Virus record (IMG/VR): IMGVR_UViG_3300030102_000152
Location: 1-29,285 of that record
Length of the DNA stretch: 29,285 nt
Direction: 5' to 3' (one strand)
Origin: a virus
The position numbers and the translations under genes were made by a program. The notes under the pieces were generated by a model that saw nothing but the letters and a program-made list of their open reading frames with translations, was not told the DNA's origin and made no database searches. Below are positions 9,912 through 13,767 of the stretch, in pieces; position 1 is the first letter of the stretch; each line of letters begins with the position of its first letter.

Positions 9912-10421
9912 ATGACAGAAGAATTAAACTTTAAAGCAATTTGTGATTTAGCAATTAATGTTTGTGATGTTTCTAAAGATACATTACTTTCTAAAACCAG
10001 GAAAAGAAAGGTACAAGCAGTTAGAGCATCAGTAGCTTATATTGCAAGAACTGAAGAAGATATACATAGAAATATAATTGCTAAAGTTTTAAATAGAGAT
10101 AGGACTGCAACTTATCACTATGAAAGAAACCACAAAAACCTTTATAGTAGATGTATAATTTATAGAAATATATTTACTAAAATCTACAAAGCATATAAAG
10201 ATATTGATGGCACAAAAGAAATATTTATTGACAAAGATTATATGAAGTCTTTTTTACTTAAAGGAGGTGTTACAGAAAAACTTGATCCTGATGTATTACT
10301 AGAAGTAAAAAGTGGTGAAGTTAAATGTATTATTAAGACTTCTTACTTTGATTTTTCTAATCAATTAAAAATAATTAATTTTGTGCTGAAGAATTATCAC
10401 TTTAGTGTAAAGATTATATAA
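9912..10421 (+). CDS. DnaA domain IV-like DNA-binding protein
   Basis: A 169-aa protein. Residues about 24-76 carry LLSKTRKRKVQAVRASVAYI, then IIAKVLNRDRTATYHY, matching the DnaA C-terminal pattern (SKxRKRxxVxAR...GRDHTTVxHA). That domain binds DnaA boxes. No AAA+ ATPase domain is present, so it is not a full initiator. The remaining 90 residues are unfamiliar and strand/helix mixed. It could mark a phage origin, recruit or block host DnaA, or act as a regulator. It lies between the SSB-like and replisome-organiser-like genes, which supports replication. Confidence 0.75.
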   Translation: MTEELNFKAICDLAINVCDVSKDTLLSKTRKRKVQAVRASVAYIARTEEDIHRNIIAKVLNRDRTATYHYERNHKNLYSRCIIYRNIFTKIYKAYKDIDGTKEIFIDKDYMKSFLLKGGVTEKLDPDVLLEVKSGEVKCIIKTSYFDFSNQLKIINFVLKNYHFSVKII

Positions 10422-11026
10422 TGGAAAAACCAAACTATTATGCAGTTATTCCTGCACAGGTAAGATATAGTAAAAAGCTAACACCTAATGCTAAATTACT
10501 TTATGCAGAAATAACTGCTTTATGTAATATGAATGGTAAATGTACAGCATCAACTGAATACTTTTGTAAATTATATGAAGTTAGTAGAGTATCAATTCAA
10601 AAATGGTTAAAGATTTTAGAAGATAATAAGCATATTAAGCGTGTTAACATATATAAACAGGGTAGTAAAGAAATATTAACAAGGGTGATAACTTTGGTTA
10701 ACATACCCAGTAAAGAAAAGTTAACAGATAATATTAATACTAAAGTATATAATAATACTAATACTACGTATAGTAATAAGGGGCGTTTTAAAAAACCAAC
10801 TTTAGATCAAGTTAATGATTATTGTATTGAAAGAAAAAATAATGTAGATGCAGAAGCGTTCTTAGATTTTTATGCAAGCAAAGATTGGAAAATTGGTAAG
10901 AATAAAATGAAAGATTGGAAAGCTGCAATAAGAACTTGGGAACGTAGAGAAACAAAGAAACCAACTATGAGTAAATTACATTCACAAATAAATGAATGGC
11001 AAGAAGCTAAAAAATTATTAAAATGA
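10421..11026 (+). CDS. Replisome organiser-like HTH protein
   Basis: A 201-aa protein. The N-terminus YYAVIPAQVRYSKKLTPNAK, followed by LLYAEITALCNMNGKCTAST and VSRVSIQKWLKILEDN, is the winged-helix form (HTH_36/DnaD N-domain type) of phage replication-initiation proteins. After an Asn/Thr-rich linker, residues about 125-172 (LDQVNDYCIERKNNVDAEAF to WKAAIRTWERR) match the conserved C-terminal segment of such proteins, with its DWKAAIRTW helix. It would bind the origin and help load helicase. The start is coupled to the upstream stop (ATAATGG). Confidence 0.8.
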   Translation: MEKPNYYAVIPAQVRYSKKLTPNAKLLYAEITALCNMNGKCTASTEYFCKLYEVSRVSIQKWLKILEDNKHIKRVNIYKQGSKEILTRVITLVNIPSKEKLTDNINTKVYNNTNTTYSNKGRFKKPTLDQVNDYCIERKNNVDAEAFLDFYASKDWKIGKNKMKDWKAAIRTWERRETKKPTMSKLHSQINEWQEAKKLLK

Positions 11027-11394
11027 AACCACTAAAACAAGAGAACGACAAAGACTTGACTAACAAAGTGTTAGACTTAATTGCTAAAACATCAGTAGAG
11101 ATAGGACACAAAATAGATAGAGATACTTTAGCTAGTTTAAGTAAAATATTTGCATCAGACTTAATACAAGAAAAAAGATTTGGAAATATGACTTTTAATC
11201 AAATAGAAGATGCTTTTAGATTAGGAGTTAGATTTGGAAAAGATGAACCATTTTTAAATATAAGAACATTTTACAAATGGGTTTATAGTCATAAAAAAGA
11301 AAGAATAGATAATGCTTATTATCAAGTTCATACATTAGGGCAAAACCCAAAAGAAGTTAAATATTATCAAAAACCTATAAAATTATTAAAATGA
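11023..11394 (+). CDS. Early hypothetical protein, possible helicase-loader partner
   Basis: A 123-aa protein, overlapping the preceding gene by ATGA. It is helical (DLTNKVLDLIAKTSVEIGHK, DRDTLASLSKIFASDLIQE), then MTFNQIEDAFRLGVRFGKDE and FLNIRTFYKWVYSHKKER. The second half resembles small replication-accessory proteins encoded after organiser genes, which sample a threshold of similar helices, but I see no Walker motif, so it is no AAA+ loader by itself. Note that no replicative helicase or polymerase is seen in the window; the phage must borrow these from its host. Confidence 0.55.
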   Translation: MKPLKQENDKDLTNKVLDLIAKTSVEIGHKIDRDTLASLSKIFASDLIQEKRFGNMTFNQIEDAFRLGVRFGKDEPFLNIRTFYKWVYSHKKERIDNAYYQVHTLGQNPKEVKYYQKPIKLLK

Positions 11395-12116
11395 ATAAGA
11401 ATTTATTAAATGGAGTAATAAAGTCTATACCTAGAAAATGGACAAAAGAAAATATAAAACAACTATTATATTTAAAAAAAGAAAAATCTATTAAAGAAAT
11501 ATCTAAAATAATAAATAGAACTGAAACATCAATAACAATTAAATTGAAAAGATTAAAATTTTCTAATGATACTTATAATGAAAAACATAGAACAGACAAA
11601 TATAAATGTAATAGATTATTTATATCAGAAATAAAACCTAAAAATATTTTAGATGTTTATGCAGGAAATTCTTATTATAAAAAAACAACTAACATAGAGG
11701 TAATAGATAATGATATAAAAGGAATAGAAACAAATTATAAATTAGATGCTTTTGACTTTCTATTTAAATTTAAAAAAAAGAAATTTGATTTAATTGACTT
11801 GGATCCATTTGGTAGTGCTTTTAATTGTTTTGATTTAGCATTACAAATAGCACAAAAAGGTTTAATTATTACATTCGGTGAATACGGACACAAAAGATGG
11901 AGAAGAAGTGATTATGTAAAAAATAGATATAATATAAAAACTTATCAAGATTTTACTCCAGAAAAATTTAATAATTATGTTATTAAAAGAGCAAAAATAT
12001 ACAATAAAGATTTGTCTATTTTTATTTCAAAAGATTATGGAAATATAATAAGAACTTATTTTAAAATTAAACTTGTAGAAAAAAGCGTTTCAGGAAAAGA
12101 ATATTATAAAAAATAA
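11391..12116 (+). CDS. HTH plus Trm1-like methyltransferase
   Basis: A 241-aa protein. Residues 15-57 form an HTH/Myb-like unit (KWTKENIKQLLYLKKEKSIK, RTETSITIKLKRL). The rest is a Rossmann methyltransferase: motif I-like NILDVYAGN (85-93), acidic loop IDNDI (105-109), and DLDPFG (136-141). DPFG is the motif IV form of the Trm1 family (tRNA guanine-26 N2 methyltransferases), not DPPY or SPPY of adenine/N4-cytosine enzymes. Trm1 enzymes are much longer and lack this HTH. Here the target is more likely DNA, to evade restriction, but RNA is possible. It is coupled on both sides. Confidence 0.7.
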   Translation: MNKNLLNGVIKSIPRKWTKENIKQLLYLKKEKSIKEISKIINRTETSITIKLKRLKFSNDTYNEKHRTDKYKCNRLFISEIKPKNILDVYAGNSYYKKTTNIEVIDNDIKGIETNYKLDAFDFLFKFKKKKFDLIDLDPFGSAFNCFDLALQIAQKGLIITFGEYGHKRWRRSDYVKNRYNIKTYQDFTPEKFNNYVIKRAKIYNKDLSIFISKDYGNIIRTYFKIKLVEKSVSGKEYYKK

Positions 12117-12120
12117 AAAT

Positions 12121-12417
12121 ATGAAAACAAAAGACAAGGTAAGATATTGGCTTACAAAACACGAACACCTAAGAGATAATGATTATAAATTATGCTGTAA
12201 TATTTGGAATCAAGAATTAAAAGAATATATTATTATGGATAATTCAACTGCTAGAGATTTTCTAAGAATATATGCTTTAGGAAAACTAACATCAGCACCA
12301 AGTATTAAAAGAGCAAGAGCAAAACTTCAAGAAGAAGAACCTGAATTAAGAGGTAGTAAATATAAGTTAAGAAAGAAAACTTATAACAAAGAATGGCGTA
12401 AAATAGCAGGGGTATGA
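12121..12417 (+). CDS. Conserved phage protein beside ninG
   Basis: A 98-aa basic protein (TKDKVRYWLTKHEHLRDNDY, then SAPSIKRARAKLQEEEPELR, GSKYKLRKKTYNKEWRK). The SIKRARAKLQEE stretch is a recognition-helix-like pattern found in small conserved proteins encoded before NinG or HNH genes in phages. A DNA-binding role is likely from charge and context. It overlaps NinG by four bases (ATGA). Confidence 0.6.
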   Translation: MKTKDKVRYWLTKHEHLRDNDYKLCCNIWNQELKEYIIMDNSTARDFLRIYALGKLTSAPSIKRARAKLQEEEPELRGSKYKLRKKTYNKEWRKIAGV

Positions 12418-12821
12418 AAAAAACCATAACTAAACTAAAAAAAGAATTAGATAAATTTTTTAGTCTATATATTAGGTTAAGAGAAGCAACAGATACTGGA
12501 ATGTGTCAATGCTTTACTTGTGGTAAAGTAGATCACTATAAAAAAATGCAATGTGGTCATTTTCAAAGTCGAAGACACTTATCTACAAGATGGAATGAGC
12601 AAAACTGTCAAGTACAATGTCCTGCTTGTAATGTATTTAGATATGGAGAACAATGGAAGTTTGGTTTAAGGTTAGAATATAAATATGGTGAAGGAACATC
12701 AGAAGAATTAGAAGTATTATCATTAACAACACATAAGAAAGCAAGGTGGGAATATGATGATGATATAAGTTATTACAAAAGTTTTGTTAATAATTTAAAA
12801 AAGGAAAAAGGTATTTTGTAA
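12414..12821 (+). CDS. ninG: NinG-like recombination protein (Rap type)
   Basis: A 135-aa protein with the NinG cysteine/histidine signature: C31-x-C33-x2-C36, K44-K-M-Q-C47-G-H49-F, then N64-C65-x3-C69-x2-C72-N-x-F-x-x-G. These bind zinc. Lambda NinG (Rap) is a Holliday-junction endonuclease that shifts recombination outcomes and shortens branches in replicating phage DNA. With SSB-like, annealing candidate and NinB in the same block this forms a lambda-style recombination set. The C-terminal half is a WKFGLRLEYKYGEGTSEEL segment typical of the family. Confidence 0.9.
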   Translation: MKKTITKLKKELDKFFSLYIRLREATDTGMCQCFTCGKVDHYKKMQCGHFQSRRHLSTRWNEQNCQVQCPACNVFRYGEQWKFGLRLEYKYGEGTSEELEVLSLTTHKKARWEYDDDISYYKSFVNNLKKEKGIL

Positions 12822-12842: not shown

Positions 12843-13199
12843 ATGCTAAATCCAATATATACAAGTGAAGAACATAAAACACTTATAAATTTATATTTAA
12901 GCACTTGTAAAGAGTTTTGCAAAGACATCACTACTAAATCTAAATACAATAATTATTTAGAAGTGTTAGATACTATAATAGAATACCATAACAATTATGG
13001 TTCAGGAGTTAAGGAAAACAATTTTTATGATTGGATAATGATTATACCTATAAATGTATCAGTAGCAACAAATGCTTTTTTTGCAGGAGTAGAAACAAAA
13101 AGAAATGCTGCAACATTAAGAAGTTATAAGGTTATTTTAGAACAATTAGTAGAAGAAGTTGCAGACAAGATAAATGATTTTGAATTAACTAATGAATGA
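12843..13199 (+). CDS. Hypothetical protein, helical (118 aa)
   Basis: ATG at 12843 chosen over a TTG two codons upstream. The 118-aa product is helical (TSEEHKTLINLYLSTCKEFC, then NVSVATNAFFAGVETKRNAA, SYKVILEQLVEEVADKI). No family is recognised. It overlaps the sigma-like gene by eight bases. Adjacency to a sigma-like factor makes a regulatory partner possible but unsupported by motif. Confidence 0.6.
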   Translation: MLNPIYTSEEHKTLINLYLSTCKEFCKDITTKSKYNNYLEVLDTIIEYHNNYGSGVKENNFYDWIMIIPINVSVATNAFFAGVETKRNAATLRSYKVILEQLVEEVADKINDFELTNE

Positions 13200-13767
13200 T
13201 ATATATATAGAAATATCAAAATTATCAGATAAGTTTAAAGAAATGTGTTATGGTCTTACAACAGATGAAAACAAAATAAATAATTGTGTCCAGGAGTTAA
13301 TGTTGTATTTTTTACAAATGAATCCTGACACATTGAAAAGTATTTGGGAAAAAGATGGAAAGCAAGGAATTATAAGATATGGTGCAGTAGTTTTAAAAAG
13401 AGCATTAACAAGTCCTAGAAGTCCATTTTATTATAAGTATGAAAAGTATTATACACGTATTGATAAATTCCATTGTGATCCTAAATCGGATATTACTAAT
13501 ATTGATTATAGAGGTCATAATATTTATTATAACAATTTATCAAACATTTCAGAAGAAGAACAAAAATATCAATGGGAAAAATTAGAAGAAATAGATAAGC
13601 AGTTAGATAAATTAGATAGTTGGTATGATAGAGAATTGTTTAAGCTATACTATTATGAAGGAAACACATTAGATAGTTTAGCAGCTAAAACTAAGATAAG
13701 TAGGAATAGTTTGTTTACAACAATAGATAAAGTCAGATCAATATTAAAAAAAGAATTAAATGAATAG
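13192..13767 (+). CDS. Sigma-70-like transcription factor
   Basis: A 191-aa protein. Residues about 28-50 (KINNCVQELMLYFLQMNPDT) resemble sigma region 2.1 (DLxQE-type helix). Residues about 134-190 carry DKLDSWYDRELFKLYYYEGN, then TLDSLAAKTKISRNSLFTTI and DKVRSILKKEL, a region-4 HTH. The middle (TSPRSPFYYKYEKYYTRID) is a conserved stretch in this phage protein family. It would redirect host RNA polymerase. The dispersed TTCTATTATATAGTA motif upstream of late blocks is the natural candidate target; the link is inference. It lies near the end of the early block, right timing for a late switch. Confidence 0.75.
   Translation: MNDIYIEISKLSDKFKEMCYGLTTDENKINNCVQELMLYFLQMNPDTLKSIWEKDGKQGIIRYGAVVLKRALTSPRSPFYYKYEKYYTRIDKFHCDPKSDITNIDYRGHNIYYNNLSNISEEEQKYQWEKLEEIDKQLDKLDSWYDRELFKLYYYEGNTLDSLAAKTKISRNSLFTTIDKVRSILKKELNE

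What the first reader, a model, noticed from the sequence alone, without database searches (positions are those of the whole stretch)
11391..12116. HTH fused to a Trm1-like methyltransferase with DPFG motif
DLDPFG (136-141) is the motif IV form of tRNA m2,2G26 methyltransferases, but the protein is short and carries an N-terminal HTH, and there is no THUMP or zinc domain visible. In an early phage operon this suggests a DNA-modifying enzyme acting on an exocyclic guanine amine, or a phage tRNA/RNA modifier. I know of no well-described phage DNA modification of that kind.
Basis: partly seen in the sequence, partly recalled or inferred. Interest (0 to 1): 0.62.

Follow-up and report, generated by a model that had tools for sequence, protein, structure and literature searches.

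The report
Phage HTH–Trm1-type methyltransferase, probably DNA-directed
A group of environmental viruses, probably phages, carries a small methyl-transferring enzyme whose catalytic core descends from the Trm1 tRNA methyltransferases but is joined to a DNA-binding-type domain; cousins of it sit where a DNA methyltransferase belongs in restriction-like gene pairs, so it probably marks DNA by a chemistry not yet described for phages.

Summary
ORF 11391-12116 (241 aa) has an N-terminal GcrA/Myb-type HTH and a Rossmann methyltransferase with DLDPFG. All 24 aligned members of its family match Pfam TRM and NCBIfam TRM1, and no other methyltransferase family. Profile comparison with archaeal Trm1 gives 98% probability (0-43% for neighbouring DNA methyltransferases). 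A model with pLDDT 86 has Trm1 as best structural match over residues 58-235. The Trm1 C-terminal domain is absent. About 47 IMG/VR loci carry the gene; tblastn found none in 50,697 annotated phage records. Catalytic-site residues are invariant or nearly so, and dN/dS is about 0.2.

New evidence on the substrate: a sister clade (HTHs plus Trm1-like domain) lies directly before a ~340-aa nuclease-like protein in three unrelated contexts, including the Conexibacter arvalis chromosome. In two other contigs the same nuclease-like family is preceded instead by an N4/N6 DNA methyltransferase. So the Trm1-like protein takes a DNA methyltransferase's place in a restriction-modification-like pair. Window-type genes are also enriched next to DNA methyltransferase genes.

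Best reading: an orphan viral DNA methyltransferase on a Trm1 core, acting on an exocyclic amine. The base is not determined. An RNA substrate is not excluded.

The parts
11391..12116 (+). HTH-Trm1-like methyltransferase gene (241 aa)
   Evidence: ORF; TRM/TRM1 matches; dN/dS
11424..11561 (+). N-terminal helix-turn-helix, residues 12-57, GcrA/Myb/sigma-70-r4-like; W17 and R43 conserved in the family
11562..12095 (+). Trm1-type class I methyltransferase domain, residues 58-235
   Evidence: VIA-align Z 15.9 to Trm1 3axs over 175 residues; Foldseek 4.8e-8
11643..11678 (+). motif I region NILDVYAGNSYY (residues 85-96), presumed AdoMet site
   Evidence: alignment; role inferred from fold
11787..11816 (+). 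motif IV DLIDLDPFGS (residues 133-142); D138 presumed catalytic
   Evidence: D133, D136, D138, G141, S142 47/47
11859..11912 (+). post-motif-IV segment GLIITFGEYGHKRWRRSD (residues 157-174); T-F-G-E resembles the TFGGEY of the restriction-linked sister clade where Trm1 has T-A-T-D
10421..11026 (+). upstream replication-initiation protein (HTH_36), same co-oriented module
12414..12821 (+). downstream NinG/Rap-type DNA endonuclease, same co-oriented module

Best explanation
It is a catalytically competent AdoMet-dependent methyltransferase with a Trm1-derived core. The C-terminal domain of Trm1 is missing and an N-terminal DNA-binding-type HTH has been gained. It most likely works as an orphan, sequence-guided DNA methyltransferase of the virus: the HTH helps to place the enzyme on DNA, the target base enters the pocket beside D138-P-F-G, and a methyl group is put on an exocyclic amine, which would protect viral DNA from host restriction or mark it for viral regulation. 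Shown by computation: homology, fold, conservation, architecture, linkage. Inferred: activity, DNA as substrate, base-flipping, biological role. Not determined: which base (N2-guanine, N4-cytosine or N6-adenine).
For: Trm1 homology. Fold. Conserved catalytic-site residues and purifying selection. DNA as substrate: (1) N-terminal HTH with DNA-binding family matches; (2) the sister clade, closer to this family than Trm1 is (hhalign 98.7%, E 2e-16, 244 columns including the HTH, against 97.8%, E 1e-12) and grouped with it in a tree (93/80), is followed, with overlapping reading frames, by a conserved ~340-aa nuclease-like protein in L033, L042 (Conexibacter) and L072; (3) that nuclease-like family is preceded instead by N6_N4 DNA methyltransferases above the Pfam cut-off in L075 and L076; (4) DNA methyltransferase genes are enriched directly beside window-type genes (8 of 78 adjacent against 5 of 348 more distant ORFs after removing near-duplicates, Fisher p 5e-4); (5) no tRNA gene in the window and in 40 of 41 related loci; the gene lies between replication and NinG genes.
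Against: All characterised Trm1 enzymes act on tRNA. The restriction-linked proteins are a sister clade, so substrate identity is carried over by inference. The partner's nuclease nature rests on a D...EVR pattern: no Pfam, NCBIfam, PADLOC or credible PDB match, and a non-canonical (D/E)xK. An HTH can also serve other roles. The loci are partial contigs, so tRNA genes elsewhere in those genomes are not excluded. The Fisher test treats related loci as nearly independent, and the near-duplicates to drop were chosen by hand.
Confidence: 0.6

Rival explanations
1. An RNA methyltransferase: it puts m2G or m2,2G on host tRNA (at or near G26) or another RNA during infection, for example to stabilise tRNAs or to escape tRNA-targeting defence; the HTH binds RNA or a partner.
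For: The catalytic core is homologous to Trm1, all of whose characterised members act on tRNA; an active-site Asp is needed for catalysis in S. pombe Trm1 (PMC10652106).
Against: The Trm1 C-terminal domain is absent; the HTH families matched are DNA-binding; the sister clade sits in a restriction-like pair; no tRNA genes nearby.
Confidence: 0.22
2. A SAM-binding or non-catalytic DNA-binding regulator that uses the methyltransferase fold as a sensor or dimerisation module.
For: Motif I is degenerate compared with canonical GxG; the HTH is prominent; replication-module context; three of 47 members have P139 replaced by Ser.
Against: D138, G141, S142, E164, R169, R172 and D174 are invariant and P139 is kept in 44 of 47, which a mere sensor would not need; the sister clade is linked to a nuclease-like protein.
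Confidence: 0.1
3. A sub-case of the best explanation: a DNA methyltransferase making ordinary m6A or m4C through a Trm1-like core (a new sequence family with a known product).
For: In the sister clade's pair it is interchangeable with an N6_N4-type methyltransferase beside a nuclease-like partner 44-45% identical, which suggests that the same sites are protected by a comparable mark.
Against: The motif is DPFG as in Trm1, without the second Pro of (D/N/S)PP(Y/F/W); there is no profile similarity to those families (0-1% probability).
Confidence: 0.3

Closest known systems
Trm1, tRNA (guanine26-N2)-dimethyltransferase (PF02005, TIGR00308; structures 2dul, 2ejt, 2ytz, 3axs)
   Same: Methyltransferase core: fold over residues 58-235 (Z 15.9), DLDPFGS motif, FDLIDLDPFG and terminal RVYF-like strand; profile probability about 98%
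   Different: No C-terminal Trm1 domain and no zinc cysteines; added N-terminal HTH; TFGExxxxR replaces TATDxxxLCG; scores about 250 bits below the TRM1 cut-off; viral, and near DNA methyltransferases and nucleases
Orphan phage DNA methyltransferases (N6_N4_Mtase, C5 types)
   Same: Genomic place in replication modules beside NinG, VRR-NUC-like genes and other methyltransferases; presumed role of protecting or marking DNA
   Different: Unrelated by profile (0-1% for N6/N4, 43% for C5); DPFG instead of DPPY/SPPY/PC
Type II restriction-modification pairs
   Same: The sister clade forms an overlapping two-gene pair with a nuclease-like protein
   Different: The window family has no constant nuclease partner; the methyltransferase is Trm1-like; nuclease activity untested
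GcrA / Myb-like HTH proteins
   Same: N-terminal HTH of the W(T/S)xEE... type
   Different: There the HTH is not joined to a methyltransferase

Membership tests
Trm1 (tRNA m2,2G26 methyltransferase) | Trm1-type catalytic core with DPFG motif IV | tested here: met
Trm1 (tRNA m2,2G26 methyltransferase) | Score above the curated TRM1 family cut-off (280.65 bits in TIGR00308) | tested here: not met
   29.9 bits; Pfam TRM 26.9 against 27
Trm1 (tRNA m2,2G26 methyltransferase) | C-terminal Trm1 domain | tested here: not met
   Profile match ends at 221 of 375 and the protein ends at residue 241
Trm1 (tRNA m2,2G26 methyltransferase) | tRNA G26 N2-methylation activity | not testable with these tools
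   needs biochemistry
Known amino-DNA methyltransferases (N6_N4_Mtase, D12, N6_Mtase) | (D/N/S)PP(Y/F/W) motif IV and family profile match | tested here: not met
   No Pfam match in any of 24 members; hhalign 0-1%
C5-cytosine DNA methyltransferases | PC catalytic motif and PF00145 match | tested here: not met
   No PF00145 match in 24 members; weak hhalign 43% over 63 columns
Restriction-modification system | Cognate nuclease gene beside the methyltransferase | tested here: not met
   Window neighbours are a 98-aa ORF and NinG; no constant nuclease beside the family. Met only in the sister clade as a nuclease-like gene
DNA methyltransferase in the broad sense (works like one) | Methyl transfer to DNA | not testable with these tools
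   indirect genomic evidence only

The most novel reading that the evidence does not exclude
A new class of DNA methyltransferase on a Trm1 core that makes N2-methylguanine in DNA, used by viruses as an orphan mark and by bacteria and mobile elements as the modification half of a restriction-modification system with an undescribed nuclease family.
Probability: 0.25. Interest if true: 0.87.

Novelty: new variant of a known kind. Interest (0 to 1): 0.66.

Why it matters
Characterised DNA base methylation in prokaryotes is, to my knowledge, m6A, m4C and m5C. A Trm1-type enzyme recruited to DNA would be a passage from tRNA to DNA modification and might give a minor-groove mark on guanine that standard methylome pipelines are not trained on. 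It also points to an unannotated candidate restriction system, testable in one cloning experiment.

Tried and rejected
A single-sequence AlphaFold model was useless (pLDDT 34); the alignment-based one was good. tblastn of four family proteins (window, L015, L028, L033) against 50,697 phage records found nothing, nor did L072; the sister clade and its partner were not found in plasmids. Search of Actinomycetota genomes found the pair only in C. arvalis, plus one marginal partner match. The partner protein has no Pfam, NCBIfam, PADLOC or credible PDB match, so PD-(D/E)XK is an inference from DFVVP...FIEVRKS only. Two genome-contig scans gave no window-type relative in cellular genomes; the hits were archaeal Trm1 and L042. 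The literature library gave no paper pairing N2-methylguanine with restriction-modification, a 'DPFG motif' with methyltransferase, or N2-methyldeoxyguanosine with phage. Small Trm1-like proteins without HTH (L030 group, L032) lack the motif IV Pro and were left out of the argument; their place in the tree is unsure.

Full report
OBSERVATION. The ORF at 11391-12116 is real, 241 aa, and overlaps the upstream stop codon. It lies in a co-oriented module with a DUF3127/SSB-like gene, a DnaA-domain-IV-like gene, a replication-initiation gene and a NinG/Rap-type endonuclease. DLDPFG is at residues 136-141. 'Early' expression is an inference from the neighbours.

FAMILY. Iterated searches of IMG/VR gave about 47 loci encoding window-type proteins, 35-77% identical to it apart from near-copies, with the same HTH-methyltransferase order. 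tblastn found none in the INPHARED phage collection. Codon comparison shows purifying selection (dN 0.137, dS 0.802 against L005).

WHAT IT IS. All 24 aligned members match Pfam TRM and TIGR00308 TRM1; no other methyltransferase family is matched. A profile of the family finds Trm1 (2dul) first in the PDB, E 1.7e-4. hhalign against five archaeal Trm1 sequences gives 97.9%, E 5e-13 over 145 columns, against 1.1%, 0.2% and 43% for N6/N4, SPPY and C5 DNA methyltransferases. The AlphaFold model (pLDDT 85.9) matches Aquifex and Pyrococcus Trm1 best: Foldseek 4.8e-8, Z 15.9, 3.2 A over 175 residues. Next come RlmI- and Trm5-type RNA methyltransferases with fewer residues aligned (the best of them lies at Z 14.9, only 1 below Trm1, so fold alone would not decide; sequence does). 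The C-terminal domain of Trm1 is missing and an HTH related to GcrA/Myb/sigma-70 r4 precedes the core.

CATALYTIC COMPETENCE. D138, G141, S142, G163, E164, R169, R172, D174, Y180 and R221 are 47/47; P139 is 44/47 and position 140 is always aromatic. In S. pombe Trm1 a conserved active-site Asp (D201) is required for methylation (PMC10652106); its equivalence to D138 is assumed from the motif, not aligned here.

SUBSTRATE. A sister clade (about 405-417 aa, HTH region plus the same core) was found in L033/L034, L072 (set among phage tail-type genes, on the other strand) and the Conexibacter arvalis chromosome (L042). Profile comparison places it closer to the window family than Trm1 is, with the HTH included (98.7%, E 2e-16, 244 columns), and a tree groups the two (93/80; the root is drawn at the midpoint only). 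In all three contexts the next gene, whose reading frame overlaps the end of the methyltransferase gene, encodes a conserved ~340-aa protein (41-69% identical) with invariant RADFV...F.EVR.SS, resembling a PD-(D/E)XK core; it has no database match. In L075 and L076 a member of that same family, 44-45% identical to the L033 copy, is preceded by an N6_N4 DNA methyltransferase with SPPY (E 8e-8 and 6e-7, above the cut-off). Such replacement of one enzyme by another in a two-gene pair is what a shared DNA-modifying role predicts. In L033 a C5 DNA methyltransferase fused to a PP-loop domain lies upstream as well. In the window family DNA methyltransferase genes are concentrated at the adjacent positions (odds ratio 7.8, p 5e-4). 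No tRNA genes are in the window or in 40 of 41 related loci.

WHICH BASE. DPFG argues for guanine N2 by homology; interchangeability with an N4/N6-type enzyme argues for N4-cytosine or N6-adenine. N2-dimethylguanine would disturb G:C pairing, so in DNA a mono-methyl product is more plausible (own inference). I leave this open.

LIMITS. The partner's nuclease activity, the methyl transfer and the DNA substrate are all unproven. The sister clade has only three independent contexts and the alternative partner two. Relatives are metagenomic contigs, often partial.

Noticed in passing
L033:2799-7071, L034:608-4880: Candidate DNA-modification island between serine recombinases: Asn-synthase/QueC-like PP-loop fused to a C5 DNA methyltransferase, then HTH-Trm1-like protein, then nuclease-like protein.
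   Followed up: partly
L033:6046-7068, L042:8498-9559, L072:7184-8218, L075:1305-2324, L076:5983-7017: Unannotated ~340-aa nuclease-like family with invariant SLYAKDKMFSAINWKG, paired with two unrelated kinds of methyltransferase; no Pfam, NCBIfam or PADLOC model matched.
   Followed up: partly
L030:5875-6471, L035, L036-L039, L032:589-1203: Small Trm1-like proteins without HTH whose motif IV lacks the Pro (DIDSYG, DLDAYG); L032 follows a ParB-like gene as phage DNA methyltransferases often do.
   Followed up: partly
window 9912-10421: Phage protein with a DnaA domain-IV-like HTH (Bac_DnaA_C E 3e-5) just before the replication-initiation gene.
   Followed up: no
window 13192-13767: Weak sigma-70 region-4-like C-terminus (phrog_36 E 2.6e-5); similar genes lie near several related loci (cluster 12).
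   Followed up: no
L072:5986-8221: The Trm1-like/nuclease-like pair lies on the opposite strand among phage tail-type genes, like a moron.
   Followed up: no
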